Assembly (NCBI RefSeq): GCF_020623625.1
Contig: NC_060201.1
Location: 1-64,000 of the forward strand
Length of the DNA stretch: 64,000 bases
From: Saccharomycodes ludwigii
Lineage: Eukaryota > Ascomycota > Saccharomycetes > Saccharomycodales > Saccharomycodaceae
Reading direction: 5' to 3'
Below, piece by piece: positions 1 to 43,300 of the stretch (within the stretch, counting starts at the first letter, position 1; the number at the start of each line of letters is the position of its first letter). The notes under the pieces were generated by a model. That model was not told where the DNA came from. It saw nothing but the letters and a program-made list of their open reading frames with translations, and made no database searches. A program made the translations under genes and the position numbers.

Positions 1-830
1 TACTCACCAATTCGACTCCCCACCTTCACACAAATATTATAATCCGAATACTTCATCATCCGAGTCAAATATTTATCCGAATACTTCATAATCCGACCAA
101 TTTATTTATCCGAATATTATAATCCGAGTACTTTGTAATCCGAGTCAAATATTTATCCGAATATTATAATCCGAATACTTCACAATCCGACCAATTTATT
201 TATCCGAATATTATAACCCGAACACTTTGTAATCCGACTGAATTATTTATCCGAATATTATAATCCGAATACTTTGTAATCCGAGTCAATTATTTATCCG
301 AATATTATAACCCGAATACTTCATAATCCGACCAATTTATTTATCCGAATATTATAACCCGAATACTTTGTGATCCGACCAATTTATTTATCCGAACAAT
401 ATAACCCGAATACTTCACAATCCGACCAAAATATTTATCCGAATATTATAATCCGAATACTTCATAATCCGACCAATTTATTTATCCGAATATTATAATC
501 CGAATACTTTGTAATCCGACCAATTTATTTATCCGAATATTATAACCCGAATACTTTGTAATCCGACCAAAATATTTATCCGAATATTATAACCCGAATA
601 CTTCATAATCCGACCAAACTATTTATCCGAATATTATAACCCGAACACTTTGTAATCCGATCGATTTATTTATCCGAATATTATAACCCGAATACTTCAT
701 CATCCGACCAATTTATTTATCCGAGTGTATATAACCCGAGTATCGTGTAAGCCGACTCAATTATTTATCCGAATACATATAACCCGAGTAATGGCTAATC
801 CGACTATATTTATATTCACTATATCCTAAT
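1..830. repeat. 47-bp tandem satellite with ATCCGA sub-repeats
   Basis: About 17 copies of a 47-bp unit run from the window edge to about 830. Successive units start at 151, 198 and 245, exactly 47 bp apart. Each unit is made of three shorter blocks of about 14, 16 and 17 bp, each beginning ATCCGA, so the satellite itself grew from a shorter repeat. Copies differ at few positions (for example CTTCATAATCC against CTTTGTAATCC). The last two or three copies (about 715-800) are visibly decayed. The array is open at the left edge. No ORF crosses it. A subtelomeric or centromere-flanking satellite is possible; the sequence does not decide. Confidence 0.9.
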
Positions 831-2037
831 TATCCCAATATATTTCTACCACAAATGCTTTCTAATCTCATCAATATATATTTATACCCACACCCAATCT
901 CTTTTAACCCTGCCCATATATTTCTAATCCAAACTCATTATACTCTCACCAATATATTTATCCCACATCCATTATAATCAAAATATACAAATTATCCCCA
1001 ATATCTTCTAATTCCATCTCAATTATTCATCCAAATATACTCCCACTTATACCACCTTGCTAATCCCAATCATTTTCCACTTCTAATCTCATTAATCATC
1101 TTTATATTAAATATGTACTACATATATGAACTAACATATTAATAACTACAATAATATTATTATACTACATATATGAATTAATATATTTATAATCTCAACA
1201 TTATTATAATACCACATATATTCATAACTACAATAATATTATTATACTAAATATATTTATAATCTCAACATTATTATTATACTACATATATAACAATCAT
1301 CTTACTCTCATATTCATAATAATCATATTAATACCAATCTATATATAATAATAATATCTTTATAATAATCATCTTGTTCTAGTATTCATAATACCAACAT
1401 TATTCTTATACTACATATATTTATAAGCTCAACAGTATTCTAATATTAAGTATATAATAATCAGCTTACTCTCATATTCATAATAATCATCTTAATTCCA
1501 TATTCATAATCTCAATAATAATATTATACTAAAGATATAATAATCATCTTATCCTCATATTTATACTAATTATATCTTTATAATAATATTATTCCAATAT
1601 CCATAATCCCTCCAATATTCTTATAATATTAATAATACCATTATAATAATCATCTTACCCTCATATTCATAATAATAACAATATCTTTATAACTATAATC
1701 TTCTTTTAATATTCATACTACCAACAATATTCCAATAATGACAGTAATCCATATATAATTATCATCTTACTTTTGTATTTATAACCTCAATAATATTCCA
1801 ATAATGACAGTAATCCATATATAATTATCATCTTAATTCCATATTATCATTATAATTATAATAGCAATCCATATATAATAATAATCTTACCCTCATATTC
1901 ATAATTACCCCAATAACATTATTATAATAATATCCTTCTTCTAGTTATAATACCAACAATATCTTTATAATAATCTTACTCTCACATTCATAATAGCAAT
2001 CCATATACAATAATCATCTTACCCTCATATTCATAAT
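831..2037. repeat. G-depleted AT-rich tract, left part
   Basis: No gene. The + strand is almost entirely A, T and C; whole 60-base stretches such as 961-1020 and 1201-1320 contain no G. Loose repeats of words such as ATAATCATCTTAC, CATATTCATAAT and CAATAATATT recur without a fixed period. It continues directly from the satellite, whose ATCCGA words fade into ATCCCA and ATCTCA forms, so it may be decayed satellite. The same DNA resumes on the other side of the copia insertion at 7526. Confidence 0.8.
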
Positions 2038-2452
2038 TGTTGGACATTTGACATTGTCTGTCCAATAATTGAACCGTTTATTTCCCGATGGATTATCGGC
2101 AAAGAATATTATAAATGTTTAATATGGACTATCGAATAATTAGGGGTAATATTCCCGAAATTATATCGGTAATAATTTGATGACGTCATATTACACACTC
2201 AAGCCCCTATTTATGACGATATACCCGAACTGGTGTACCTTGATTGAAACAGGGAAATCAAGGTATATAAAGGACACAAAACTAAGAATTAAGAATATAT
2301 TAATTAAAATTATTCCTTTATATAATTATATAGTTAGGAATTATATAAAGAGGAGAGCGAACAATTATTATAAAAGAGTAACTATTAGATATTAAGATGT
2401 CTAGTAACTTGAATAATAAGGCGGGTTTAATCGGTGACCCCGATTTTTCCCA
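2038..2452 (+). repeat. 5' LTR of the copia element (family A)
   Basis: It starts TGTTGGACATTTG and ends TTTTTCCCA. It carries a TATA-like TATATAAAGG near 2271. The gag start codon lies inside it at 2397, so its last 56 bases are coding, as in Ty1. Confidence 0.95.
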
Positions 2453-5400
2453 ATATGGTGATTTTGCCCAGGATAGTAATGTTGTCAAAGATGACAAGAC
2501 TATCAAGAGATTATTATTAACTTCCTATTTCACAATTAATGAAAGAAATGTTCTGAGGAGCAATTTTAGAAGTTTCTGTAAAGTATTTTTAGATCTAGTT
2601 GCTAGCCGTGGCCTTGAATACATATTTGATGTTGGTCCAAACGGCGTTCGCCCTAGCAAAACTGTGATTAGATGTATAAATAACTTGTTTTACCAAAAGC
2701 AAGCTTATTTTCCCCGTGAATTTAAGGATTCGCAACCATATGATATGTTAGTTGAGTTGGCGAATGAGGATTCTGATGAAGATGATGAAGATAGCTATGA
2801 CAGTATTTGTCGTGAGTGGAAAAAGTTACACTACGATGGTTCACAAAATGCTAAGATCTTCAAGAAAAGTTTATTGAGATTAGTTGCTAAAACCAAAGCA
2901 TCCAGTGCACCAATGAGTGACTATGAAATAAAATACCGTCTCATTAAATCTTTGAAAGGAGCCTACGCTAACATTAGTGATTATATTGATTATCAGTATA
3001 ATGGATTAGAAAGTGTCAAATTAGAAGACATATTGGATATCATTGTCAAACGGTATGATCAGTACAAAAAGACCAAGTCAGTAAGGTCAAGAGTTGATAA
3101 TGAAGTTAAGGCTTATGGTCGTAGTCATAAACATGATGATTATGGATTCATGACCGAATCCAGTACCAAAGCAAAGGTAGTGTGTTACAGTTGTAACAAG
3201 GAGGGTCATTATAAAAATGAATGTCCTAGTCTTATTGTGAAAAAGGATAGTTCTAAATCTAATGCCTCGACACTTACCAAAGGTAAAGTTAAGCTGGTTA
3301 ACAATCAGGAGAATATGACTAAAGTTAGTCGTATTGATGTTAATAATCAGGATGGTGAGACTGAGGAAGGTCTCACTGAAATTAGTCTTAGGCCTATCTG
3401 CACTAAGAAGGTTTTGAGAGTTGAAATTAAGAAATTTCCGAATATCTTGTATGATACGGGAGCTGATTTCTCTATTGTGAATAAAAGTTTATTGCACAAT
3501 TTAAATAAAAACACACGTTTTTCGTTAACGGACTTCAATAAGAACATTATTGATGCTCCATATGTAGGCGACTTGTTCATGAATATCAATGGTAACGAGA
3601 TTAAGTTTAGAGCTGTCGGAGTAACTAATGAATCTATGGATCCAGTTATCAGTAGGGCAAGCTTAAAGGAGTGCAATCTGATTGTAAATGAACAAGAATT
3701 ATCCATAAAGAATGCTAAGGATAATAGTTTTGTTGGAAACTTGAAGGAAAGAGAACATTCAATTTACTTTCCTGGAAATTGGGTTGTTCCACCGAACAAC
3801 ATATCGGTGAGAACAGCAAAGTCTAAAGAAAAATTTAACCTGGATCACATACATGTTTTGTTAGGACACGTAAATGTTAAGGATCTACAAAGAAGCTTCA
3901 AGTCTGGTTGTTTGGTAGGTATTAACTACGATGATATTGACTGGTCGAATGTCAATAGTTTTGGTTGTGTGACGTGTATGCAAGGCAAATCCAGATATAA
4001 AAACCATATTATTGGTAGCAGAGCGATTGCCCAACAATATTATGAAGTCGGTGAGTACTTCCATTCAGATCTATTTGGATCTGTGAGTAATATTAAGAAA
4101 GGGTACTATCATTCGTTTATAAGCTTTACAGATGAAAAATCAAAGTTCAAGTTTGTTTATGGACTAAAGAGTAAATCTGCAGAAGCAATTTTAAAGGTGT
4201 TGAAGGTTTTCGTTCCGTATGTTGAAAAGCACCTTGGTAAATCAATCAAGTATATTCAAACAGATAACGGTTTGGAATACAAGAATAGATTGGTTATGGA
4301 ATATTTGAGAAAATTTGGTATTAAATTACTAAATAATACAGCTGGTGACTCAAGAGGTAATGGTGTGGCCGAACGCCTCAATTTGACATTATTAAATGAT
4401 GCTCGAACATTGATGGGGAATACCAATTTACCAAGACATTTGTGGTTTTATGCGGTATTATTTAGTTGTTATGTGAGAAATGGTATTATTGCAGCCAGCA
4501 ACGATACAGGATGTTCTCCAAGAGAACTAATGTCTATACCAAAATTAAATGTCGCAAAGATTTTGCCATTTGGTAGTCATGTAATTTTACATCATCCTAC
4601 TCATGACAAGATCGAGAAGAGAGGTTTAGATGCTTATGTTTTGGCACCATCTGAATCATCCTTTGGATATTTAGTATGGGTGCCATCCTTAATGAGAATA
4701 GTTGATAGTTCTAGTATTTCTCTATGTAAAAGTCCATTCAATAGTGGTGAATGTCAAGAAAATGTAATTGACGAATTTATTGATGAACTTATCTCCAAAG
4801 ACGATTCATTGGATTCTAATAGAGTAGAACCATTAAGTAGTCAAACAAATGAAAGTCACAATGAAAGTGCAGAAGTAATACCTGCCACTGATCAGGATTC
4901 ATCGGAACAAATTATTCCTATTATTACTGATTACTCACGTGAAGATTCACATGAGGAATATCAAGGGAATGAATATGATGGAGATACAGAAACTACTTCT
5001 GAAGAGGCACTTGATGTTGATGAGGCAAACACTGAGAGTAGTGTAAGAACAGATAGTGTTACTGACACTGAAGAATATGTACCAAGTGATGGTATTGATG
5101 TTGCAGTTGGTAGACCTCAGACTACCGTTAATAAGAATGAAAAAGAAGTCGATGATGTCGACATTAAATCCAATGAAGTCAATGAACATGCGAACACTGA
5201 ATCTGTTTCTGATTCTAATTCTAAATCTGATTCTGATTCTAAATCTAAATCCGATTCTGATTCTGATTCTGATTCAGCTTCTAACTCTGAGAATGAATCA
5301 TCAGATTCACCTCGTGTTATTGACAGTACCAATTGGGTTGTTCAGACTAACAACAAGAAAAGAAAAATGACCACCGAGGAAATATTTGCCTCCATTCAAG

Positions 5401-7091
5401 AGGATCCCTCAATGGTCACAGCCAGAAAAAGATTAAAGATTAGGTTAGCTAAGATTCTAGCAGTGATGGAATCAGCACGAAATAACTCTGCTGATGTCAA
5501 ACATATACGTAATGAGACGTTATATTTGCACGAGGTTTATCGTCTTAGCGATCCTAACATTAAGAATCAATATTTAATGGCAATGCAGAAAGAAATTGAA
5601 GTATTAGAAGGTTCTAACACTTGGGATAGTGGGGAACCCATTCCGGTAGATAGTGTTGATCAATCAAAGATTGTGCCACTATTAATATTATTCAATGTCA
5701 AGCGATCTGGAAAGTATAAATGTCGTATTTGTGCGCGCGGAGATGTCCAGGATGCAACCACATACGAAGATTCTCTGAGCTCATCAAACTTAGCTCAGGA
5801 TGGATTGATGTTTTTACTTAACATGGTTTTGACAAATAGTTGGCATTTGGGTCAATTGGATATTCAAGGCGCATACTTGAATGCTCCAATAAACACTGAA
5901 TTGTATGTTAAGGCACCTAAGGTCTATGGATATAAGAACATGTTGTTCAAATTAAGAAAGAGTCTATATGGCCTACGCCAAAGTGGATATCTCTGGAACC
6001 AAGAGATCAGTAGTTTTCTAATCCAGATAGGTTTTCAAGAAATTGAATTTTGGCCTTCATTGTATCAAAAGAATTACGATGGTGTTGAAGGTATCAAGCA
6101 CACCATTCTTTTGGGCCTATTTGTAGATGACATGGTGGTTGTCTCCTCCAAAGAATGTGATTTTAAAGAACTGGTTGCTATGTTGAATACGCGCTACACG
6201 GTTAAAACAGTCAATGATGGAGGTGAACCTATTTATGATATTCTTGGATTAGAAATAGAATATAAGGTTGGTAGTCATTTGTCAATGACTATGGGGAAGT
6301 CTTTGGAAGAAAAACTCCCAAAGTTAGGTTTCAATCTGAGTGATAAGGTTACAAGCTTACCCCTAGTTTACGACTTCAAGCTACCAGAGAAATTGAAAAT
6401 TGACTCAGTAGACTTAGCTGAGAAAATACAAAAATGTAGAAAAGCTGTAGGATTGCTTAATTATGTTGTTGGCAAATATAGACCTGATATAAACTTCGTC
6501 GTAAATGTACTAGCAAGTTATCAGCTATATCCAACAGAAGAAATTATGAAATTGTTACACAAAACAATTAATTATTTGTGGGGGACGAGAAACCACAAAT
6601 TAATTTGGAGATATGATGATATAATTAAAGGAAATTTTAAGATTATAGTAGATGCTTCACATGGTAATCGTGAAAAGTTTCAAAGTCAGTACGGCTACAT
6701 GGTATACATGAACAATCTTCTTGTAGGATACAAAACAGGTACTACAAGCATTGCATGTATGTCATCTACTGAAGCCGAGACATATGTAGTAAACGAGGCA
6801 TCCTTGAAGTTTGAATACTGGATCCCATTACTAGAAGAATATTATTCTGAGATAACTAAAGAATTGTATTGTGACAATCAATCAGCAATAAAATTGTGTA
6901 AAGCTGATACTTTTGTTAAATTTCGAGATAAATTTCATGGAATCAGAGCATATAGAGCTAGACAACAAATGAGAAATATTGGATTTGATTTAAAATTTGT
7001 TGAATCTAAGTCAAATCCGGCTGATGTGTTAACGAAATTTGCTCCACATAAGGATAATATTAAACTGTTTATGAAAAATTTTGAGTATTGA
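2397..7091 (+). CDS. Gag-Pol polyprotein, Ty1/copia type
   Basis: A single 1564-residue frame encodes gag and pol together, an arrangement known from Ty5 and many plant copia elements, whereas Ty1 uses a +1 shift. Visible in order are a gag region, a CCHC zinc knuckle CYSCNKEGHYKNEC (263-276), a protease motif YDTGAD (about 352-357), and an integrase HHCC finger (HVLLGHV and CVTC, from about 486). The integrase DDE core follows around SDLFGS, TDNGLEY and VAERLN (about 556, 622 and 658). A linker very rich in Ser and Asp lies near 936-970. RT has QLDIQGAYLNAP (about 1151) and FVDDM (about 1243), and RNase H has SSTEAETY (about 1455). The start at 2397 is the first in-frame ATG and is shared with the related copy at 16888. 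Confidence 0.95.
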   Translation: MSSNLNNKAGLIGDPDFSQYGDFAQDSNVVKDDKTIKRLLLTSYFTINERNVLRSNFRSFCKVFLDLVASRGLEYIFDVGPNGVRPSKTVIRCINNLFYQKQAYFPREFKDSQPYDMLVELANEDSDEDDEDSYDSICREWKKLHYDGSQNAKIFKKSLLRLVAKTKASSAPMSDYEIKYRLIKSLKGAYANISDYIDYQYNGLESVKLEDILDIIVKRYDQYKKTKSVRSRVDNEVKAYGRSHKHDDYGFMTESSTKAKVVCYSCNKEGHYKNECPSLIVKKDSSKSNASTLTKGKVKLVNNQENMTKVSRIDVNNQDGETEEGLTEISLRPICTKKVLRVEIKKFPNILYDTGADFSIVNKSLLHNLNKNTRFSLTDFNKNIIDAPYVGDLFMNINGNEIKFRAVGVTNESMDPVISRASLKECNLIVNEQELSIKNAKDNSFVGNLKEREHSIYFPGNWVVPPNNISVRTAKSKEKFNLDHIHVLLGHVNVKDLQRSFKSGCLVGINYDDIDWSNVNSFGCVTCMQGKSRYKNHIIGSRAIAQQYYEVGEYFHSDLFGSVSNIKKGYYHSFISFTDEKSKFKFVYGLKSKSAEAILKVLKVFVPYVEKHLGKSIKYIQTDNGLEYKNRLVMEYLRKFGIKLLNNTAGDSRGNGVAERLNLTLLNDARTLMGNTNLPRHLWFYAVLFSCYVRNGIIAASNDTGCSPRELMSIPKLNVAKILPFGSHVILHHPTHDKIEKRGLDAYVLAPSESSFGYLVWVPSLMRIVDSSSISLCKSPFNSGECQENVIDEFIDELISKDDSLDSNRVEPLSSQTNESHNESAEVIPATDQDSSEQIIPIITDYSREDSHEEYQGNEYDGDTETTSEEALDVDEANTESSVRTDSVTDTEEYVPSDGIDVAVGRPQTTVNKNEKEVDDVDIKSNEVNEHANTESVSDSNSKSDSDSKSKSDSDSDSDSASNSENESSDSPRVIDSTNWVVQTNNKKRKMTTEEIFASIQEDPSMVTARKRLKIRLAKILAVMESARNNSADVKHIRNETLYLHEVYRLSDPNIKNQYLMAMQKEIEVLEGSNTWDSGEPIPVDSVDQSKIVPLLILFNVKRSGKYKCRICARGDVQDATTYEDSLSSSNLAQDGLMFLLNMVLTNSWHLGQLDIQGAYLNAPINTELYVKAPKVYGYKNMLFKLRKSLYGLRQSGYLWNQEISSFLIQIGFQEIEFWPSLYQKNYDGVEGIKHTILLGLFVDDMVVVSSKECDFKELVAMLNTRYTVKTVNDGGEPIYDILGLEIEYKVGSHLSMTMGKSLEEKLPKLGFNLSDKVTSLPLVYDFKLPEKLKIDSVDLAEKIQKCRKAVGLLNYVVGKYRPDINFVVNVLASYQLYPTEEIMKLLHKTINYLWGTRNHKLIWRYDDIIKGNFKIIVDASHGNREKFQSQYGYMVYMNNLLVGYKTGTTSIACMSSTEAETYVVNEASLKFEYWIPLLEEYYSEITKELYCDNQSAIKLCKADTFVKFRDKFHGIRAYRARQQMRNIGFDLKFVESKSNPADVLTKFAPHKDNIKLFMKNFEY

Positions 7092-7110
7092 TTTTCATCA
7101 ATATGGGGGA

Positions 7111-7525
7111 TGTTGGACATTTGACATTGTCTGTCCAATAATTGAACCGTTTATTTCCCGATGGATTATCGGCAAAGAATATTATAAATGTTTAATATGG
7201 ACTATCGAATAATTAGGGGTAATATTCCCGAAATTATATCGGTAATAATTTGATGACGTCATATTACACACTCAAGCCCCTATTTATGACGATATACCCG
7301 AACTGGTGTACCTTGATTGAAACAGGGAAATCAAGGTATATAAAGGACACAAAACTAAGAATTAAGAATATATTAATTAAAATTATTCCTTTATATAATT
7401 ATATAGTTAGGAATTATATAAAGAGGAGAGCGAACAATTATTATAAAAGAGTAACTATTAGATATTAAGATGTCTAGTAACTTGAATAATAAGGCGGGTT
7501 TAATCGGTGACCCCGATTTTTCCCA
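7111..7525 (+). repeat. 3' LTR of the copia element (family A)
   Basis: The same 415 bp as the LTR at 2038-2452, by eye without a difference. It is preceded by the purine tract and followed by the target duplication ATAAT. Confidence 0.95.
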
Positions 7526-9834
7526 ATAATAATAATAATAATATTATCATAATAATACTAATTTCATATTCATTATACCAACAATATTATTATATTAATA
7601 CTAATCCATATATAATAATCATCTTACTCTCTTGTTCATAATAATAGTAATATCTTTATAATAATAATCTTAATTTCATATCTATACTATTAATAATATC
7701 ATTATACTAATAATCTTAATTCCATATTAATAATACCAACAATATTATTATAATCATCCTCCTCTTATATTTATACTCATAACTATATCCTTATAATAAT
7801 TCACATACTAATTCTAATCCATATATAATACTCATCTTATTCTTATACTTATAATCTCAATAATATTCTTATACTCATTATATAATAATTATTCATAATA
7901 TATTTATAATACTAATAATATTATTATAATAATACTATTTCATATTTATAATAATAATAATAATATCATTATAATTATAATCTTCTTCCAATATCCATAA
8001 TCACAATAATCCTAATCCATATCTAACCATCTTATTCTAATACTTGTAATCCCAATGATATTCTTATACTATATATATTCTTCCAATATCATTATAGTAA
8101 TAATATCCTATATATAATACTTATCAATCAACTGTTATTATCCATACATCATAATTATTAATTCATACTTATACTCTCAATAATATTTCCAATTTCAATA
8201 TTATAAATATCTTATTATACTTATAATATTAACAAGTTATTTATATTATATCTATAATAGTTATCCCTACTATATTTATAATTCATATATAATAATTATT
8301 CAATTATACTACTTATATATTTATAACTATCATATACTAATAATACATATATTATAATTATAATATACTTATACAACTCATATATTTATTATCTTACTAT
8401 ACTTTGATTATAATATTTCTATACTATATATATTTATAATTCATATATACTTACATTACTTGGTTATTTATAATATAAATACATAATTATAATATACCTA
8501 CTCTCATAATATAATAATTATTCCCACTATACTTATAATTCATATATACTTATACCACTCATCATATAATAATTATTCCTAATATATTCATATTCCACAT
8601 ATATTTATAATCTAAATCAACTAATAACTTATCAACATCCATCCATTCATAATAATTATCCCACTAATCTTATAATAATAATATGTTTGTTATATTCATA
8701 TCCTTATACTATATATATATATAAATTGATAATCTCAATCAAATAATCCTCCATTTATATTTATAATAATCATCCATTCATATTCATATTCATATCCTCC
8801 ATTAATATTTATAATAATGTCATAATAACTTTCCATCCATCTTTATAATCAAAATAAATTCTCATAACTATAATACTCTGAATGTCTCACTATAATTATC
8901 CTCCATATATATTTATTGTATCACTCCAATAATCATTCTACTAATCGTATCTCCAATTCATATTTATAATTATCATCCATTCATATTCATATTCATATCC
9001 TCCATTAATATTCATAATAATGTCATAATAACTATCCATTCATCTTTATAATCAAAATAAATTCTCATAACTGTAATACTCTAGATATCTCAATATAATT
9101 ATCCTCCATATATATTTATTGTCTCACTCCAATAATTATTCTACTATATTTATAATACCAATATCATACTCCCAATAACATCTACAATCATATCATAATA
9201 ACTATCCATCCATCTTTATAATCAAAATAAATCCTTATAACTATAATACTCTGAATGTCTCAGTATAATTATCCTCCATATATATTTATTGTCTCACTCT
9301 AATAATCATTCTACTAATCATATCCCCAATTTGTATTTATAATAATCATTCATATTCATATTCATATTCATATTCTCAATATCATTTATAATCATGTCTC
9401 ACCACTCTTATACTCTATACCCTAGTCGTCTCATTCTACATTTATAATCATATCCAATACTTATCCTCCAAATATCTTTATTGTCTAACTCCACTTCTAT
9501 TCCATATATATCAATAGTTATACCAATCTACTTGTCACCTTAATATACTAATTATTCAAATATATTCATAATCCCAATCTAATAATTATCTCATTAGAAT
9601 AACTATTCTAATATACTTATACTATCCGTATAATAATTATCCAAATATATCAATAATCATTGTATCATGGTCGATATGTTTTTATAATCTCAATATCCAA
9701 TAACTCCACACTATCTATAATCCAATTCCAATTATACTAATAATATATCAATAACTCAAACATACTTCTAATCATACTCCATCTAGAATCCCTCATCATA
9801 TTCAAGCCAAATATCTCCAATATATAATTGTTAT
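7526..9834. repeat. G-depleted AT-rich tract, middle part
   Basis: No gene. The same G-poor composition continues as before the copia element (7561-7620, 7921-7980 and 8521-8580 contain no G). Longer near-repeats occur here. A block of about 180 bp with CATTCATATTCATATTCATATCCTCCATTAATATT and a following ATCCTCCATATATATTTATTGT block recurs near 8750-8940, 8970-9140 and 9170-9370, so this part has a higher-order repeat of roughly 200-240 bp. Confidence 0.75.
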
Positions 9835-10357
9835 TGTTCAGATGAAACCTGATCTGAAGTATTATTATTGTTGGAATTGTAGGGATGGGACATTCTTTGT
9901 AGATTAATTGTGAAACTGTTATGTTGTAGTAAATGTATATACTTGATTATAGTATTATTACTGAGTGTTCTCTTCTATTATTTATAATTATACAAAATAT
10001 ATAAAAATGTGTTTTATTTGTTCTATTCTCGTTATTTTGTGTCCATTTATATATCTCGATTTTTCTGCTTCAACCAAACAATATCAGTTCCTGAATTGTC
10101 GCTAGATGATTTTAAGTAAACAACTTTCAGCGATACTTAATTACCGATGATTCCTTATCGAATTCTTATGTTGATAAGCTTTAAGTAAACAAGTTGTCGG
10201 GATTTAATTTCCTCAATATTTAAATTATAATTATAGCTTGTTGATTAGTATATTTCCCAATTTGGTATTTGATTCCAATAATATTTCCTTATCTGGAATC
10301 TGGTTCCAGCACAAATGTTTAGTAAATTTAATTCCCTATTGGAATTTGGTTCCAACA
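9835..10357 (-). mobile_element. Solo LTR, family B, with target duplication
   Basis: A 523-bp LTR on the minus strand starting TGTTGGAACCAAATTCC and ending TTTCATCTGAACA. It is flanked by perfect 5-bp duplications GTTAT (9830-9834 and 10358-10362). Like family A it contains a start codon near its 3' end (ATG at 9893 on the minus strand, reading MSHPYNSNNNNTSDQVSSE), presumably the gag start of its parent. No internal element sequence remains here. It is a young solo LTR of a Ty1-like element. Confidence 0.9.
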
Positions 10358-11080
10358 GTTATTTCATTCATAATCCTAACATACCCACATTTCCCAATAC
10401 ACAATATCAACTCACTTATCATCCAAGTACATTTCTAATCCAAATATATAAATCCTCACAACTCACTTGTAATATAAATACGATAGTAATCATAATATAA
10501 CTAATAATCTCACCCTATTTATAATTCAATAAATAAATAATCCCAATACTCTAGTAATTCCATCTCAATTCTGATCCTATTATACTAATTTCCTCGTCAT
10601 ATCTATAAATATACTAATACTCCCATCATAATTATAATCCTAACTCTAATCCCATCATACTTTTGATACTATTTATAATCCCATCATTCATAATAATTGC
10701 ATCTATTAAATATATCATCTATCAAAATATCTCATCACCTAACAAGATAACAAAATAAAAATAAATCCTACTTTCTCCACAACTCAACTCAATTATCCAC
10801 CACTATAACTCCAACCTGTTTGTCAAACACTCCACTTATCCTCTCAATATAACTACCACTAATAATATTATCATATCCTTGTCTCTTTGTTTGTTTTTTT
10901 TACCCAATGTGTTCTTGTATCTTGTATATTATCCAATTCATTCCTCATATCATATGCCTTTTAATTAAAGAATCAGCCATATCAATGATAATCACTAGCT
11001 CTAATATAAACCTGTAAATTTATATTCCAAGCATAATCCATACAACTCAACTCATCATTTCTTAACAACTATAATAACTT
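10358..11080. other. G-depleted AT-rich tract, right end
   Basis: No gene. The G-poor + strand continues to about 11050 and then gives way to homopolymer-rich DNA. No ordered repeat was seen. Confidence 0.6.
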
Positions 11081-13437
11081 ATCAACCAAAGAAAAAAAAA
11101 ATTATTTTTTTAACAAATCTTACACGTGCAAAAAAAAACACAACTTATTATCCGACAAAAAAAAAATATTTTTTTAACAAATCTGATCCGCGCAAAAAGC
11201 ACAACGTGATCAAACAAGAACACACACGAATTAAGCTACAACAGTCACATGATTATTTTCACAAATTATCAACTGAGAAAGGAAAAAAAAAAAAAAAAAA
11301 AGAAAGAAAAAAAGGAAAAAAGAAAAAAATTTTTTTTTAAGAAATCACACCCACACAGAAAACCATTAAACATAATCAACCAAATACAACCCAACTCAAA
11401 ACTCAAATATCCTAATAATTCCTACAAATAAAATAAAATCTAAAACAAAATATCTACTACAATCACTCACTTACTCACTTGCTCGAATAAATCCTGACTA
11501 AATTTAAAAAAAAAAAAAATAAAAAAAAAACGTGATCTTTCCTTCTTCTTTCAAACACTCTCCATAATGTAATCCACCTATCAACCCTGTCTTTTTTATT
11601 TTAAATTGTTGTAAACTCTAATAATCTTCTTGGTTCATGTTAATTTACTTGTTATTCTGTGTATTTTACTTGTTTCTTATTACATATACACTTTGTACAA
11701 TGAATGTAATCAAGTTGTGTAATGTGCTAATTGAAATACAACTTTTTCTTTATTTGCCACCCGCTTCTTTTACATCGTGAAAATATTTGGTGCCCAATCC
11801 AATCTCGTATAAATAACTCGCTTGTTTTTTTATTATTTTTTTTTTTATTTGGTAGTTGTACGCCTTCTCAATGCGTCGCTTTCTGTGAGTTCAATTAATA
11901 TTTTTTTTCGCGTTTATTACTGTGTCGTATATTTTCTTCTTGATTGTATTTGTTTGCTTGTTATACGTTCATTATGCAGCAGTAGCAATCTAATCCCATC
12001 GCGCGTATCTCCTAATAAATAATTTCAAAAAGTAAATATTAATTTTCAATGAAACAAAATATTTTTTTGTATAATCCACGTGATCCTATTTTCCCAATCT
12101 ATAAATTACTAAACGAGAAATAAAAACAAAAATATTATTTTTTTTTTAACAAATCCGATCAGCGCGGTAAACACAACTAACTAAGAAGAAGGAACACTGC
12201 TACAGCTCTAACACACAAATAACCCCCATTAATAATTTAATAAATCCTACTCGCCCAAAAAAAAAAAAAAAAGTTACATTCTTGAATAAAAATTAAATTA
12301 AATAAAAATAATCATACACTGTGTCCAACAATAACTCACTCACATAAATTTTAATTAAATAATTTATTTTTATTTTTTTACCAAATAGATTGTATTTAGT
12401 GCATATATGTGTAACAACTATCGTAATATAATTTTATTTATCTTTTTTTTTTTTTGTTCAATTTATTTATCCAATTTACAATCCAACCTCCTTGTACGAT
12501 TAAAATATTACTCACACTGATATAAAGCGCTCGCTTTTTTTTTTTTTTTTTTTTTTTTTGACATCAAATGTATCACGTGGTTAAAAAAGACGACTCGCTT
12601 TCATTTCTAGTTTATATTTTTTTTTTCCTTTTTTTTTTTTTTTTAAATCTTCGTCCGAGACAAAACACGCCTCGATTTCTTATCATGTGCGACTCGACGC
12701 GTTACATTCTGATATATTCGTCATCTCGTTTATTTCTATTTTCCTTTTTTTTTATCCTAAATTCTATACGCGCAAAAAAATAAAATAAAAAAAATATATA
12801 TCACAATTAAGTACAAATCTTATCTTTAGCAATCAACTATTTACATAATTGTTTTTTAATTTTTTTTTATTTTTTTATTTTTTTTATTTTTTTTATTTTT
12901 TTTATTTTTTTTATTTTTTTACTTAATTATTATGTATAAAATAGCAAATAAACACTATAAGACACAGAGTTATTCCCAATAATGCATAAACCATCAATTG
13001 GGATGTAAGTAACACTAGTACATGTTTTTTCTTGTAATTAATTTAAGGCATGTTTTATAATCACAACAATAATAATAATATTTACTACTAGTTATCATTC
13101 GGATAATCTCTTCGATTGACTATCCATAGAATATCGGCATGAAAAGCACTTTTTCCCTGATCGAGTATTTCTGCGCGTCCTTAAAACCGCGTCCAGCTTA
13201 TGCGTCCATTTCTTAGTCCGTTTAATATCATTACCGCTTTTTTGACTCACTACCCCGCATATTTTTTTTTCCTTCGCAAATCACGGAATTAAAAACAAAT
13301 ATTCAGTTCTTATCGTTATCGGCGATCTGATTCCATCCTATAAGCTATTTGGCACTAAATAATTTATTGAAATCCAAACTCGTTAATAATCATGATAACA
13401 ATTAAATTGAGCAAAATAGTAACGAAAAAAAAAAAAC
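11081..13437. other. Gene-free, homopolymer-rich stretch with a short dispersed motif
   Basis: No convincing gene. Long A and T runs dominate (for example 11283-11300, 12537-12559 and a (TTTTTTTTA)n-like run at 12850-12920). A motif of a poly-A/poly-T pair followed by AACAAATC, a GCG-containing word and CACAAC appears at about 11086-11145, 11152-11215 and 12120-12175. The word ACTCGCTT recurs near 11817 and 12593, with GCTCGCTT near 12528. From about 13090 the DNA is less AT-rich (ATAATCTCTTCG, GCGCGTCC, ACCGCG) and is probably the upstream region of the truncated aminotransferase gene. Confidence 0.5.
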
Positions 13438-14027: not shown

Positions 14028-14550
14028 TGTTCAGATGAAACCTGATCTGAAGTAATATTATTGTTGGAATTGTAGGGATGGGACATTCTTTGTAGATTAA
14101 TTGTGAAACTGTTGTGTTGTAGTAAATGTATATACTTGATTATAGTATTATTACTGGGTGTTCTCTTCTATTATTTATAATTATACAAAATATATAAAAA
14201 TGTGTTTTATTTGTTCTATTCTCGTTATTTTGTGCCCATTTATATATCTCGATTCTTCTGCTTCAACCAAACAATATCAGTTCCTGAATTGTCGCTAGAT
14301 GATTTTAAGTAAACAACTTTCAGCGATACTTAATTACCGATGATTCCTTATCGAATTCTTATGTTGATAAGCTTTAAGTAAACAAGTTGTCGGGATTTAA
14401 GTTCCTCAATATTTAAATTATAATTATAGCTTGTTGATTAGTATATTTCCCAATTTGGTATTTGATTCCAATAATATTTCCTTATCTGGAATCTGGTTCC
14501 AGCACAAATGTTTAGTAAATTTAATTCCCTATTGGAATTTGGTTCCAACA
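14028..14550 (-). mobile_element. LTR, family B, full length, no target duplication
   Basis: A 523-bp minus-strand LTR that is almost identical to the copy at 9835-10357; I count about five or six mismatches by eye. Its right end TTCCAACA runs directly into a piece of another family-B LTR in the opposite direction. The flanks TTTAT and ACTAT do not match, so this is a recombination product rather than a simple insertion. Confidence 0.85.
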
Positions 14551-24752: not shown

Positions 24753-26796
24753 TTAAAATAAATTGAAAAACAAAACAAATAAAGTAAAGAACATCTTGAA
24801 GGTAGATATTCTGTTTGAAACAGCACCAGCTTGGTAAATAGAAATTAATCCACTAGATGCTGGTTGAGATTGAATACTTTGAACCTCAATAGCAGCTGTG
24901 CTAGAAACAGTTTCTGATTGAACAGTGGTGGTAATAACTTTGCCACCAGATGTAGTCTTGGTAACAACATTGTTGGAATTACCAGAGTTACCATTGGCAC
25001 TCTTGGTAACAGTGGTGTGAACAGAACCGGATGAAATAGTCTCAACATATTCACTAGCATTGCCTGGAGAACCTGATCCGTTTTCATTATTATTGTTTGG
25101 AACAATAGTAGATTCAATAACAGATGTGATGGTACTACCTGATGTAGTGTACACACTAGTCTTAGTAACAGTAACTGGTGTATTAGCAGTTTCGGAATTG
25201 CCAGATCCACCGTTGTTGTTGTTGTTGTTGTTGTTTGGAACAATAGTAGAGGTGATAGTAGCAGTAATGGTGCTACCAGATGTGGTAAACACACTAGTCT
25301 TAGTAACAGTAACTGGTGTATTGGAAGTCTCAGAACTAACAGAATAAACTTCGGGACCCGAATTGTTAGAACCACCATTATTGTTGTTGTTATTGTTTGG
25401 AACAGTGGTGGTAGTAGCATCGCATGTGACAATAGTCGAGGTTATAGTTCTGCCAGATGTAACAATCACAGTAGTTCTTGTAACACTAGAAGGCAATCCA
25501 GGTGTCTCAGTAGTTGAATTAACTGGAGAAACAGTTTCAGAAGTAGAGGTAGTACCTGGAGCTGGCTTAGTAAAGGTTTTTGAAGTGAAGGTACCTTTCC
25601 TTGGGTTTGTAAATGGCGCAGTGTTAGTGGTACCTGGAATAGAACTCAATGGTGATGATTTGGAGCTGGTAGTGTTGAAATAACCAAATCCTGCAGTCTC
25701 AATTGTGTAGATGGTAGATGTAGTTGGAATACCATCAGTACCAGTAGTGTTAATTACAGTGGTTACAATAATAGAGATGGAGGTACCGGTTCATGATGTA
25801 TAAGTAGTAGTAGTACCTTCGACCTCTGGTGTCTCAACATAAACAACAGTTGATTTAATGATCTCACTATTTGAATCGGTACTTGTCAATACAGAAGTGG
25901 TGTAAGTAGATGTAAATGTACCTGTCCAAGGAACTGTTTTTGTCGAATAGGCTGGACAATACGATTCTTCTTCATCAAATGTATAAACATAATTTTCAAA
26001 ATCACTAAGAACAGTTCCACTTGGTAAAGTTGCTGTAAAATTCAAGCTTGCTTTTGTTAGTGCATTAGTAAAAACAATTCTCAAAGGATAGTAAGAACCA
26101 GCAATCAGATTCATACTCTTTGATATAGAAGCTTCTTGTCCTGAAAATAAACCCTTAATAGCGTTTATAAAGAAATCTGTTGTAGTACTGGTAATATTGT
26201 TTTGTTCGCAACAACCAAAAGCATTTTGACCAAACAATAAACCAGACGAATCATCAACATTTCCTAGGGTAAAAGTATAATTACCAGTTTCTGGAGCTAA
26301 AAAATAACCGCTAATTTCCATTGTGAAATTAGTAAAAGTTGTGTTATAATCATAAACCACTGGTAAACTATAAGCATTTACCCCTTGATTATAACAAGTA
26401 TATGAATTGTATGGCGCTTCTGCAGATGGACAATACCAGTTGTTGTTAGCAGCACCACTACGCTCACTATAACAGAGGAAGTACACAGATGGGTCTGTTT
26501 GGCTGTACTTACAAGGAAAACCTGATTGAAAGGAAACAGTGGTAATACCATCTGATATATGGTATGGTGCAGATTTTTGATAATAACCATAAGCCATATA
26601 TTCTAAGCTTGAAAATGACTTTGTATCATCAAGAGTGTAGTTAAACCACCTCACTTTAAAACCTTCAGTTGGATCTGAAATTGGACTACAAGCATCCATT
26701 GTATCATCAGATGCTGTAGCATTTATTAATCTTGATCCTTGTAATAGACAAAGGCTTAATAGTAAAAATCCCCGATTATGCAAATAGGGTTAACAT
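24753..26796 (-). pseudogene. Short Flo1-type flocculin paralogue, one repeat unit, two lesions
   Basis: A copy of the flocculin at 37365 with the same N-terminal lectin domain, Asp-Asp motif, C-terminal Thr/Asn-rich repeats and GPI tail, but only one 135-bp unit where the other gene has 52. Two lesions are visible. The ancestral ATG (26794-26796) is followed by one extra base, giving a stop after six codons. A TGA at 25791-25793 replaces the Trp codon of the first repeat. After each lesion the frame continues cleanly for hundreds of codons. The lectin part (26783-25791) and the rest (25790-24753) are in the same frame. The high similarity of the lectin domains implies recent duplication or gene conversion. 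It could still donate sequence to the intact gene by recombination. Confidence 0.85.
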
Positions 26797-37364: not shown

Positions 37365-40300
37365 ATGTTAACCCTATTAAATAGTCGGGGATTTTTACTA
37401 TTGATCCTTTGTCTATTACAAGGATCAAAATTAATAAATGCTACAGCATCTGATGATACAATGGATGCTTGTAGTCCAATTTCAGATCCAACTGAAGGCT
37501 TTAAAGTGAGATGGTTTAACTACACTCTTGATGATACAAAGTCATTTTCAAGCTTAGAATATATGGCTTATGGTTATTATCAAAACTCTGCACCATACCA
37601 TATATCAGATGGTATTACCACTGTTTCCTTTCAATCAGGTTTTCCTTGTAAGTACAGCCAAACAGACCCATCTGTGTACTTTCTCTGTTATGGTGAACGT
37701 AGTAGTGCTGCTAACAACAATTGGTATTGTCCATCTGCAGAAGCGCCATACAATTCATATACTTGTTATAATCAAGGGGTAAATGCTTATAGTTTACCAG
37801 TGGTTTATGATTATAACACAACTTTTACTAATTTCACAATGGAAATTAGCGGTTATTTTTTAGCTCCAGAAACTGGTAATTATACTTTTACCCTAGGGAA
37901 TGTTGATGATTCATCTGGTTTATTGTTTGGTCAAAATGCTTTTGGCTGTTGCGAACAAAACAATATTACCAGTACTACAACAGATTTCTTCATAAACGCT
38001 ATTAAGGGTTTATTTTCAGGACAAGAAGCTTCTACATCAAAGAGTATGAATCTAATTGCTGGTTCTTACTATCCTTTGAGAATTGTTTTTACTAATGCAC
38101 TAACAAAAGCAAGCTTGAATTTTACAGCAACTTTACCAAGTGGAACTGTTCTCACTGATTTTGAAAATTATGTTTATACATTTGATGAAGAAGAATCGTA
38201 TTGTCCAGCCTATTCAACAAAAACAGTTCCTTGGACAGGCACATTTACATCTACTTACACCACTTCTGTATTGACAAGTACCGATTCAAATAGTAACATC
38301 ATTAAATCGACTGTCGTTTATGTTGAGACGCCAGAATTCGAAGGTACTACTACTACCTATACATCGTGGACCGGTACATACACTTCTACCATTGGTACTA
38401 GTGTAACTACCAGTGTTGGATCGGATGGTATTACAACAACCTCTACTATTTACACTGTTGAAACTCCAGAAGCTAAACATACTACTACTACTTACAAACC
38501 ATGGACCGGTACATTCACATCTACCATTGGTACTAGTGTTACCACCAGCATTGGCTCAGACGGTATTCCAACTACCTCTACTATTTACACTGTTGAAACT
38601 CCAGAAGCTGAAGGTGTTACTACTACTTACACACCATGGACCGGTACATACACTTCTACCATTGGTACTAGTGTTACCACCAGCATTGGCTCAAACGGTA
38701 TTCCAACTACCTCTACTATTTACACTGTTGAAACTCCAGAAGCTGAAGGTGTTACTACCACTTACACACCATGGACCGGTACATACACTTCTACCATTGG
38801 TACTAGTGTTACCACCAGCATTGGTTCCGATGGTATTCCAACTACCTCTACTATTTACACTGTTGAAACTCCAGAAGCTGAAGGTGTTACTACCACTTAC
38901 ACTCCATGGACTGGTACATTCACATCTACCATTGGTACTAGTGTTACCACCAGCATTGGTTCCGATGGTATTCCAACTACCTCTACTATTTACACTGTTG
39001 AAACTCCAGAAGCTGAAGGTGTTACTACCACTTACACTCCATGGACTGGTACATTCACATCTACCATTGGTACTAGTGTTACCACCAGCATTGGCTCAAA
39101 CGGTATTCCAACTACCTCCACTATTTACACAGTCGAAACTCCAGAAGCTGATGCTGTTACTACCACTTACACACCATGGACCGGTACATACACTTCTACC
39201 ATTGGTACTAGTGTTACTACCAGCATTGGCTCAGACGGTATTCCAACTACCTCTACTATTTACACTGTTGAAACTCCAGAAGCTGAAGGTGTTACTACTA
39301 CTTACACACCATGGACCGGTACATACACTTCTACCATTGGTACTAGTGTTACCACCAGCATTGGCTCAAACGGTATTCCAACTACCTCTACTATTTACAC
39401 TGTTGAAACTCCAGAAGCTGAAGGTGTTACTACCACTTACACACCATGGACCGGTACATACACTTCTACCATTGGTACTAGTGTTACCACCAGCATTGGT
39501 TCCGATGGTATTCCAACTACCTCTACTATTTACACTGTTGAAACTCCAGAAGCTGAAGGTGTTACTACCACTTACACTCCATGGACTGGTACATTCACAT
39601 CTACCATTGGTACTAGTGTTACCACCAGCATTGGTTCCGATGGTATTCCAACTACCTCTACTATTTACACTGTTGAAACTCCAGAAGCTGAAGGTGTTAC
39701 TACCACTTACACTCCATGGACTGGTACATTCACATCTACCATTGGTACTAGTGTTACCACCAGCATTGGCTCAAACGGTATTCCAACTACTTCCACTATT
39801 TACACTGTTGAAACTCCAGAAGTTGAAGGTGTTACTACTACTTACACACCATGGACCGGTACATACACTTCTACCATTGGTACTAGTGTTACTACCAGCA
39901 TTGGCTCAGACGGTATTCCAACTACCTCTACTATTTACACTGTTGAAACTCCAGAAGCTGAAGGTGTTACTACTACTTACACACCATGGACCGGTACATA
40001 CACTTCTACCATTGGTACTAGTGTTACCACCAGCATTGGCTCAAACGGTATTCCAACTACCTCTACTATTTACACTGTTGAAACTCCAGAAGCTGAAGGT
40101 GTTACTACCACTTACACTCCATGGACTGGTACATTCACATCTACCATTGGTACTAGTGTTACCACCAGCATTGGTTCCGATGGTATTCCAACTACCTCTA
40201 CTATTTACACTGTTGAAACTCCAGAAGCTGAAGGTGTTACTACCACTTACACACCATGGACCGGTACATACACTTCTACCATTGGTACTAGTGTTACCAC

Positions 40301-43300
40301 CAGCATTGGTTCCGATGGTATTCCAACTACCTCTACTATTTACACTGTTGAAACTCCAGAAGTTAAAGGTGTTACTACTACTTACACACCATGGACCGGT
40401 ACATACACTTCTACCATTGGTACTAGTGTTACCACCAGCATTGGCTCAAACGGTATTCCAACTACCTCTACTATTTACACTGTTGAAACTCCAGAAGCTG
40501 AAGGTGTTACTACCACTTACACTCCATGGACTGGTACATTCACATCTACCATTGGTACTAGTGTTACTACCAGTAATGGCTCAGATGGTATTCCAACTAC
40601 CTCTACTATTTACACTGTTGAAACTCCAGAAGTTAAAGGTGTTACTACTACTTACACACCATGGACCGGTACATACACTTCTACCATTGGTACTAGTGTT
40701 ACCACCAGCATTGGCTCAAACGGTATTCCAACTACCTCTACTATTTACACTGTTGAAACTCCAGAAGCTGAAGGTGTTACTACTACTTACACACCATGGA
40801 CCGGTACATACACTTCTACCATTGGTACTAGTGTTACCACCAGCATTGGCTCAAACGGTATTCCAACTACCTCCACTATTTACACAGTCGAAACTCCAGA
40901 AGCTGATGCTGTTACTACCACTTACACACCATGGACCGGTACATACACTTCTACCATTGGTACTAGTGTTACCACCAGCATTGGTTCCGATGGTATTCCA
41001 ACTACCTCTACTATTTACACTGTTGAAACTCCAGAAGCTGAAGGTGTTACTACCACTTACACTCCATGGACTGGTACATTCACATCTACCATTGGTACTA
41101 GTGTTACCACCAGCATTGGTTCCGATGGTATTCCAACTACCTCTACTATTTACACTGTTGAAACTCCAGAAGCTGAAGGTGTTACTACTACTTACACACC
41201 ATGGACCGGTACATACACTTCTACCATTGGTACTAGTGTTACCACCAGCATTGGCTCAAACGGTATTCCAACTACCTCTACTATTTACACTGTTGAAACT
41301 CCAGAAGCTGAAGGTGTTACTACCACTTACACTCCATGGACTGGTACATTCACATCTACCATTGGTACTAGTGTTACTACCAGTAATGGCTCAGATGGTA
41401 TTCCAACTACCTCTACTATTTACACTGTTGAAACTCCAGAAGTTAAAGGTGTTACTACTACTTACACACCATGGACCGGTACATACACTTCTACCATTGG
41501 TACTAGTGTTATCACCAGCATTGGTTCCGATGGTATTCCAACTACCTCTACTATTTACACTGTTGAAACTCCAGAAGCTGAAGGTGTTACTACCACTTAC
41601 ACTCCATGGACTGGTACATTCACATCTACCATTGGTACTAGTGTTACTACCAGTAATGGCTCAGATGGTATTCCAACTACTTCCACTATTTACACTGTTG
41701 AAACTCCAGAAGCTGAAGGTGTTACTACTACTTACACACCATGGACCGGTACATACACTTCTACCATTGGTACTAGTGTTACTACCAGCATTGGCTCAGA
41801 CGGTATTCCAACTACCTCTACTATTTACACTGTTGAAACTCCAGAAGCTGAAGGTGTTACTACTACTTACACACCATGGACCGGTACATACACTTCTACC
41901 ATTGGTACTAGTGTTACCACCAGCATTGGCTCAAACGGTATTCCAACTACCTCTACTATTTACACTGTTGAAACTCCAGAAGCTGAAGGTGTTACTACCA
42001 CTTACACTCCATGGACTGGTACATTCACATCTACCATTGGTACTAGTGTTACCACCAGCATTGGTTCCGATGGTATTCCAACTACCTCTACTATTTACAC
42101 TGTTGAAACTCCAGAAGTTAAAGGTGTTACTACTACTTACACACCATGGACCGGTACATACACTTCTACCATTGGTACTAGTGTTACCACCAGCATTGGT
42201 TCCGATGGTATTCCAACTACTTCCACTATTTACACAGTCGAAACTCCAGAAGCTGAAGGTGTTACTACTACTTACACACCATGGACCGGTACATACACTT
42301 CTACCATTGGTACTAGTGTTACTACCAGTATTGGCTCAGATGGTATTCCAACTACCTCCACTATTTACACAGTCGAAACTCCAGAAGCTGATGCTGTTAC
42401 TACCACTTACACACCATGGACCGGTACATACACTTCTACCATTGGTACTAGTGTTACCACCAGCATTGGTTCCGATGGTATTCCAACTACCTCTACTATT
42501 TACACTGTTGAAACTCCAGAAGATGAAGGTGTTACTACTACTTACACACCATGGACCGGTACATACACTTCTACCATTGGTACTAGTGTTACCACCAGCA
42601 TTGGCTCAGACGGTATTCCAACTACCTCTACTATTTACACTGTTGAAACTCCAGAAGCTGAAGGTGTTACTACCACTTACACACCATGGACAGGTACATA
42701 CACTTCTACCATTGGTACTAGTGTTACCACCAGCATTGGTTCCGATGATATTCCAACTACTTCCACTATTTACACTGTTGAAACTCCAACCAACAACGGT
42801 GTTACTACTACTTACACACCATGGACTGGATCTGTTACATCTACTATTGGTACTAGTGTAGTTACTACTACTGGTACTGATGGTATCCCTACCACTTCCA
42901 CCACTTACATTGTTGAAACTCCAACCAACAACGGTGTTACTACTACTTACACACCATGGACTGGATCTGTTACATCTACTATTGGTACTAGTGTAGTTAC
43001 TACTACTGGTACTGATGGTATCCCAACCACCTCCACTACTTACACTGTTGAAACTCCAACCAACAACGGTGTTACTACTACTTACACACCATGGACTGGA
43101 TCTGTTACATCTACTATTGGTACTAGTGTAGTTACTACTACTGGTACTGATGGTATTCCAACTACATCTACCATTTACACGGTAGAGACTCCAATGATTC
43201 CTGCTGGAAGTACTACATATGAAGCTTGGACTGGATCTGTTACTACTACTGTTGGTACTTCAATTTTCACTACTACTGGTACTGATGGTATTCCAACCAC

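What the first reader, a model, noticed from the sequence alone, without database searches (positions are those of the whole stretch)
831..11050. About 4 kb of DNA with almost no G on one strand
Outside the two inserted elements the + strand of 831-2037, 7526-9834 and 10358-11050 is nearly free of G, with many 60-base lines having none, while C stays common. Such extreme strand skew is unlike ordinary AT-rich spacer. It continues from the satellite, whose CCGA words seem to lose G. C-rich 5' strands are typical of left chromosome ends, so decayed telomere-like or satellite DNA, or strong strand-specific mutation, are candidate causes.
Basis: partly seen in the sequence, partly recalled or inferred. 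Interest (0 to 1): 0.75.

Follow-up and report, generated by a model that had tools for sequence, protein, structure and literature searches.

The report
G-free satellite capping every yeast chromosome
At every assembled chromosome end of a budding yeast (very probably Saccharomycodes ludwigii) lie a few kilobases of worn repeat DNA with almost no G on the 5'-ending strand, a bias that recent mutations are eroding and that is therefore likely inherited from an old G-free repeat rather than produced today.

Summary
In the tract, 20 of 20 200-bp windows have GC skew of -0.65 or lower; in 40 kb of sampled chromosome interior the extremes are -0.47 and 0.49. The window is a left chromosome end of a 12.5-Mb yeast, identified as Saccharomycodes ludwigii NBRC 1722 by its assembly N50. 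A homologous tract, in the same orientation to the telomere, lies at 14 of 14 chromosome ends, the 14th on a small contig taken as the missing end of C7. The 15 copies total 63 kb (C 19.5%, G 2.3%, A about equal to T). The tract is a worn tandem array with a 17-bp periodicity.

Strand-specific mutation is not the present cause. Cleanly aligned changes private to one end create G and C about equally (24 vs 28). Gs arise 26 times for 2 lost, so the bias is eroding. Gs are mostly unshared between diverged copies, so the ancestor was poorer in G. I infer a G-free founder repeat that spread to all ends and is decaying. A compound founder is needed, and how its units diversified without gaining G is unexplained. 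Past damage to the exposed 3' strand, or weak selection, remain possible. The whole genome could not be scanned.

The parts
1..35 (+). Conserved junction between terminal telomere repeats and satellite (CACCAATTCGACTCCCCACCTTCACAC); telomere repeats themselves are missing from this contig end
   Evidence: The same words follow irregular C1-3A telomere repeats at other ends, e.g. 3L, 4L, 6L, 3R, 4R, 5R, 6R
36..813 (+). 47-bp satellite, three CCGA words per unit, about 15.6 copies; nearly G-free outside CCGA
   Evidence: Tandem Repeats Finder, period 47, 77-813; G contexts for 31-790; a query holding it (1-1000) matches at all 14 ends
831..2037 (+). Tract part A: G 1.7%, C 19.8%, worn tandem array
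2038..7525 (+). Recent copia-type LTR retrotransposon (LTRs 2038-2452 and 7111-7525 identical; one 1564-aa frame 2397-7091; repeats ATAAT at 2033-2037 and 7526-7530)
   Evidence: RVT_2 E 6.7e-31 and zinc knuckle above the curated cut-off; integrase core E 3e-5, below it
7526..9834 (+). Tract part B: G 1.9%, C 17.9%; 17-bp signal strong; nested 203- and 373-bp repeats
9835..10357 (+). Solo LTR of a second family, repeats GTTAT at 9830-9834 and 10358-10362
10358..11100 (+). Tract part C: G 3.9%, C 23.7% (10358-11050); weak 17-bp signal (z 3.0); 94-97% alike at 12 other ends, 83.5% at the 14th (1R)
11101..13000 (+). Inner flank (part D) of the shared module, skew fading to about -0.3, no 17-bp signal

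Best explanation
The tract is a worn tandem repeat shared by all 14 chromosome ends, and its lack of G is likely inherited from a founder repeat that had no G on the 5'-ending strand. Shown: one homologous module at 14 of 14 ends, in one orientation; a 17-bp periodicity; recent point changes that are close to strand-symmetric and raise the G content; Gs that are mostly not shared between diverged copies. Inferred: a short G-free unit, or a small group of such units, was amplified next to the telomere. Duplication, slippage and exchange between ends copied G-free DNA from G-free DNA and spread it to every end. Ordinary mutation has since put back the present 2% G, which by the recent rate needs about 11% substitution per lineage. 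No function of the bias itself is needed.
For: 14 of 14 ends carry it. 17-bp signal: lag z about 13 in two tracts and 7 in a third. The 17-state model trained on end 6L beats a 3rd-order Markov model on the diverged 1R copy (-0.964 vs -1.017 per base), and periods 16 and 18 do worse. The signal holds when C and G are treated as one letter (z 7.7, 11.3, 11.1) and is absent in part D and in four stretches of other DNA. Private, cleanly flanked changes: G gains 24 vs C gains 28 at A/T sites; G losses 2 of 608 sites vs C losses 38 of 6,630 (the setting with most events; the four others gave 10:10, 11:10, 15:13, 21:24). All G gains to losses 26:2, p 3e-6. Their rates give an equilibrium GC of 23% (my arithmetic); the published mutation-accumulation value for the species is 23.3%, so they look like real mutation. 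Share of Gs common to both copies falls .84.56.28.15.11 over identity bands 95-99 to 75-79%, while for C it falls .96 to .62 (looser flank filter). A simulated four-unit G-free founder with symmetric mutation and slippage gives 2.2% G and C and G frequencies at A positions close to those observed.
Against: A single 17-bp founder does not reproduce the tract: too little C (12-14%) and too few C at A positions. A compound founder is needed; even that one gives C .151 against .183-.191 and too much A at T positions (.109 against .014-.019), and why its units diversified without gaining G is not explained. Unfiltered private changes in part A look asymmetric (A/T to G 9, to C 38). Variants shared by 2-3 ends are nearly even in the loose setting (15.5 vs 18.8) but 4.7 vs 10.0 in the strictest. 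Among poorly matching copies few mismatches involve G (about .11-.17 at 75-79% identity), where neutral simulation keeps about .30. With the stricter flank filter the share of common Gs does not keep falling.84.63.38.25, then .48 and .67 in the two lowest bands (5,015 and 907 columns). I read the low-identity results as repeat turnover and misalignment, which is not proven. In part D the 1R outer copy has C where at least 90% of the others have G at 8 sites and the reverse at none.
Confidence: 0.48

Rival explanations
1. Past or episodic strand-specific damage: when an end was resected, the exposed 3' (G-rich) strand lost its Cs, mainly by C-to-G change at abasic sites during refilling, and the altered end was then copied to the others.
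For: In yeast, exposed subtelomeric strands collect strand-biased clusters over kilobases (PMC2577886 passages). With an introduced cytosine deaminase in UNG1 cells 46.9% of changes were C to G and 41.7% C to T on the overhang strand (PMC3521656 passages). The tract has the GC content of the low tail of sampled interior DNA but with G:C pairs turned one way and no AT skew, as pure G-to-C change on this strand predicts (AT skew 0.00; G-to-A only predicts +0.22). 8:0 direction of C/G differences in the 1R outer copy.
Against: No such change is seen in recent substitutions (G>C 0 of 608 sites). A half-and-half spectrum would leave AT skew +0.07; observed -0.02. An LTR about 9% diverged between the two 1R tracts keeps ordinary G content (.167 against .172 in the recent 2L LTR), and an LTR fragment inside the 8L tract has the same composition as six copies outside tracts (G .094 against .084-.102). 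Polarity of the 8 differences is unknown.
Confidence: 0.2
2. Purifying selection against G on the 5'-ending strand, for example to keep the exposed 3' strand or a telomere-directed transcript free of stable hairpins.
For: The 3' strand of the tract folds less stably than the same DNA with its G:C pairs randomly turned (-5.6 vs -9.8 kcal/mol per 150 nt) and than AT-rich interior DNA (-8.9). Share of G-involving mismatches drops at low identity. In the strictest setting older variants show fewer G than C gains (4.7 vs 10.0 against 10 vs 10 for private ones). The diverged 1R outer copy is still G-poor.
Against: No excess of G loss (2 of 608 private; 5.5 of 608 weighted for older ones). In the loose setting older and private changes have the same G:C gain ratio (15.5 vs 18.8; 24 vs 28). 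In the cleanly alignable part C the G share is equal within and between groups (17 of 54 vs 7 of 24). With gap-free flanks the drop vanishes down to 85% identity.
Confidence: 0.18
3. Ongoing mutational asymmetry from one-way replication or transcription towards the telomere.
For: Orientation is the same at all 14 ends; the skew fades inward over about 2 kb.
Against: Recent changes are close to strand-symmetric. Had the fall in shared Gs (to .56 at 6% divergence) come from loss, about 17 G losses were expected and 2 were seen. Orientation of one homologous family is one event, not 14.
Confidence: 0.05
4. The tract is the 47-bp CCGA satellite after loss of its Gs.
For: Both are built of 14-17-bp subunits and both are nearly G-free outside CCGA.
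Against: Profile search E about 2; 17-bp model on the satellite z 1.7, reversed control as good. Symmetric decay of CCGA would leave many Gs behind (inference).
Confidence: 0.08

Closest known systems
Telomere-associated (subtelomeric) satellite repeats of yeasts (recalled as a class)
   Same: Tandem repeats next to the telomere, shared by all ends, variable in copy structure between ends
   Different: Nearly all G:C pairs point the same way over 4-5 kb
Kluyveromyces lactis distal subtelomeric element with purine/pyrimidine strand bias (Nickles and McEachern 2004; recalled, paper not held)
   Same: Subtelomeric element with strong strand bias
   Different: Here the bias is G against C only; pyrimidines on the C strand are just 59% because A equals T. 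Homology not tested
S. ludwigii NBRC 1722 assembly (PMC8567612; passages seen)
   Different: The words skew, asymmetr-, satellite and strand bias do not occur in the held main text; supplement not read
GC-skewed human subtelomeres prone to RNA:DNA hybrids (PMC5286223; listing and start of abstract seen)
   Same: GC skew next to the telomere
   Different: Human DNA with evidence of hybrids; here AT-rich yeast DNA, transcription unknown

Membership tests
Subtelomeric satellite / telomere-associated repeat | Tandem repetition | tested here: met
   17-bp periodicity and nested longer repeats
Subtelomeric satellite / telomere-associated repeat | Present next to telomeres at most ends and not inside chromosomes | tested here: met
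   14 of 14 ends; best non-terminal match among the 100 listed is 87.8 bits over 101 bp. Limit: homology search, which scores only its best candidates
Subtelomeric satellite / telomere-associated repeat | Copies homogenised between ends | tested here: met
   Part C 94-97% alike at 12 other ends (83.5% at 1R); part B 73-89% for the main match at most ends, with pieces at 93-98% at 3L, 4L and 8L
K. lactis-type purine/pyrimidine-biased element | One strand strongly purine- or pyrimidine-rich | tested here: not met
   C+T 59% on the C strand
Telomere repeat DNA (C1-3A) | Irregular C1-3A / TG1-3 pattern | tested here: not met
   Tract is 78% A+T; terminal repeats of this genome are C1-3A, seen at 9 of 14 ends
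Replication- or transcription-driven mutational skew | Strand-asymmetric recent substitutions | tested here: not met
   G gains 24, C gains 28; losses 2 of 608 and 38 of 6,630; unfiltered counts in part A differ, 9 vs 38
S. cerevisiae Y' element | Long helicase reading frame (recalled) | tested here: not met
   Longest ATG frame in the tract 40 aa
R-loop / TERRA-forming GC-skew tract | Transcription towards the telomere and RNA:DNA hybrids | not testable with these tools
   No RNA data

The most novel reading that the evidence does not exclude
Chromosome ends keep a fossil record of single-strand exposure: whenever an end is resected, the 3' strand loses its Cs by C-to-G repair synthesis, the rewritten end is copied to all others, and between such resets Gs tick back in like a clock.
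Probability: 0.15. Interest if true: 0.8.

Novelty: new member of a known kind. Interest (0 to 1): 0.42.

Why it matters
It shows that a near-total strand bias over kilobases need not mean a strand-biased process acting now: here the recent mutations run against it. The tract may also serve as a clock, since on the founder reading every G is a later arrival in DNA that started without G. Fifteen homologous copies in one genome would let the age of the module and exchange between ends be measured, in a yeast reported to have almost no meiotic crossing over (PMC8567612). If the exposed-strand version is right, subtelomeres would record past telomere failure.

Tried and rejected
Ongoing mutational asymmetry: rejected by the recent spectrum. 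The unfiltered column counts (A/T to G 9, to C 38) had suggested it; they include regions with repeat-length differences and an excess of transversions.

Purge of G seen as a fall in G-involving mismatches: weakened, since with gap-free flanks it is flat (.31.30.31) from 95-99 down to 85-89% identity and falls only below that. With another windowing it falls earlier (.33.39.25.17.12). A polymorphism-divergence comparison gave no difference.

Neutral simulation: the runs labelled .01.03 and .05 all ran at about .03 because of step rounding; the .08-.15 runs are close to their labels.

LTR copies as mutation reporters: of 9 copies compared, 7 in or beside tracts; G losses 2 and G gains 3 among those 7; too few to weigh alone.

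Satellite-to-tract descent: inconclusive. Deep alignment of 1R outer against other copies: only 70-74 usable columns, not used. Rfam: no match in the window. Papers: the listings show no description of this tract; they cover only the held open library, and the K. lactis paper is recalled. PMC6778800 and PMC3486848, opened for that paper, cite a different one by the same author; PMC6527239 passages were not used further.
Full report
What genome this is. The window is contig C2:1-64000 of a 12,500,424-base assembly in 8 contigs. Contig C3 is 1,848,403 bases long, exactly the N50 printed for the Saccharomycodes ludwigii NBRC 1722 assembly, which is 12.5 Mb in 7 chromosomes (PMC8567612, passages). 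Irregular C1-3A telomere repeats stand at 9 of the 14 ends that carry the module, and the paper reports telomere repeats in 9 cases. The identification is firm but indirect. The paper says that all scaffold ends share subtelomere-related repeats; its held main text does not contain skew, asymmetr-, satellite or strand bias.

The observation. Each of the three tract pieces is as described: 4,209 bp with 1.7-3.9% G and 18-24% C. All 20 windows of 200 bp have skew of -0.65 or lower; in 200 interior windows the extremes are -0.47 and 0.49. A and T are balanced, so the bias concerns only which way round the G:C pairs stand. GC content (about 22% over all tracts) lies at the low end of sampled interior DNA (5% quantile .214).

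It is at every end. Skew profiles show the tract at 13 contig ends plus the end of the 26-kb contig C8; only the right end of C7 lacks it. C7 stops in repeats whose translation reads like the window's flocculin gene (by eye), and the inner 2 kb of C8 matches part of the last 8 kb of C7 at 98.8% over 2,012 bp in the facing orientation, so C8 is taken as the missing right end. That makes 14 of 14. All face the telomere the same way, but they are one homologous family, so this counts as one orientation, not fourteen. Chromosome end 1R holds two copies of the module. The 15 tracts total 63,429 bp after LTRs are left out: A .385, C .195, G .023, T .397. The nearest non-terminal match among the 100 listed has 87.8 bits over 101 bp.

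What it is built of. Tandem Repeats Finder reports many arrays of period about 17 and 46-48, and larger nested units. Self-match lags of 17, 34, 20, 23 and 26 stand out against 3rd-order Markov shuffles, as does 6. A circular 17-state model trained on end 6L predicts the diverged 1R copy better than a 3rd-order Markov model, and better than periods 16 and 18; some larger periods do as well or better (26, 34, 46). With C and G merged into one letter the signal remains in parts A and B and in the 1R copy (z 7.7 to 11.3), is weak in part C (3.0) and in the 1R outer copy (3.8), and is absent in part D and in four stretches of other DNA. The tract is thus a worn tandem array. It has no ATG reading frame above 40 codons.

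Is the bias being made now? For each end I took bases that differ from all aligned other ends, with clean flanks. In parts A and B, A/T sites gained G 24 times and C 28 times; G was lost at 2 of 608 sites and C at 38 of 6,630 (the setting with most events; the four other settings gave 10:10, 11:10, 15:13 and 21:24, and one search gave 6:7). Net, G is gained 26 times for 2 losses (p 3e-6). Variants shared by 2-3 ends give 15.5 vs 18.8 (weighted) in that setting and 4.7 vs 10.0 in the strictest. From the private counts GC loss is about 3.3 times GC gain per site and the equilibrium GC is about 23% (my arithmetic); the mutation-accumulation study reports 3.6-fold and 23.3%. So these changes look like ordinary mutation, close to strand-symmetric, and they erode the bias.

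Where the Gs come from. Between copies, the share of Gs common to both falls from .84 at 95-99% identity to .28 at 85-89% and .11 at 75-79%, while C falls from .96 to .62. With a stricter flank filter it falls to .25 at 80-84% and then rises again in two small bands (.48.67), which I distrust but report. If loss caused the fall, about 17 losses were expected in the private set; 2 were seen. The Gs are therefore mostly recent gains and the ancestor was poorer in G. At the recent rate, 2.3% G takes about 11% substitution per lineage (my arithmetic).

Results that do not fit neatly. Unfiltered counts in part A show few G gains (9 against 38 for C). The share of mismatches involving G is about .30 in close copies but .11-.17 at 75-79% identity, whereas simulation with symmetric mutation stays near .30 (.23 in its closest band). 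With gap-free flanks it is flat to 85%. My reading is that deep differences come largely from repeat slippage and exchange, which reshuffle G-free words. A single 17-bp founder fails to reproduce the C content, while a four-unit founder comes nearer (G .022, C .151 against .183-.191 observed) but has too much A at T positions. So the founder must already have been a compound G-free repeat, and I cannot show how it arose. In part D, the 1R outer copy has C for G at 8 sites and never the reverse, which fits past C-to-G change on the exposed strand.

Rivals. Exposed-strand damage is known to act over kilobases at yeast ends (PMC2577886, passages) and can yield C-to-G as often as C-to-T (PMC3521656, passages). 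The balanced A and T demand almost pure C-to-G, and no trace is seen in recent changes. Selection for an unstructured 3' strand has a physical basis but little support in the substitution data. LTR DNA in or between the tracts keeps the composition of copies elsewhere.

Verdict. A real and extreme feature, best explained as an inherited and now decaying composition of a shared subtelomeric satellite. The founder step is inferred; slippage as the main early force is inferred; spread between ends is shown by similarity only.

Noticed in passing
window 2038-7525: Copia-type LTR retrotransposon with identical LTRs, inserted in the tract. In this genome 19 of 19 reported LTR matches lie within 31.4 kb of a chromosome end, as if it targets subtelomeres.
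   Followed up: partly
window 9835-10357 and 14028-14550: A second LTR family; 72 of 73 reported matches lie within 27 kb of a chromosome end, the exception at C2:1247741.
   Followed up: partly
window 37365-46613: 3,082-aa frame whose first 712 aa match GLEYA, PA14 and flocculin repeats; a partial copy of its N-terminal domain lies on the minus strand at 25791-26699 (by eye).
   Followed up: partly
contigs C7 right end and C8: C8 (26 kb) overlaps the right end of C7 at 98.8% over 2 kb and is probably its missing end.
   Followed up: yes
window 50386-51414 and 56150-57991: Thiamine genes near the end: a THI5-like frame and one with phosphomethylpyrimidine kinase and TENA/THI-4 domains.
   Followed up: no
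window 36-813: 47-bp satellite with three CCGA words per unit; CG is 3.3 times over-represented (50 against 15 expected), suggesting a protein-binding word.
   Followed up: no
chromosome end 1R (contig C1 right end): Two copies of the subtelomeric module in tandem, the outer one much diverged but still G-poor.
   Followed up: partly
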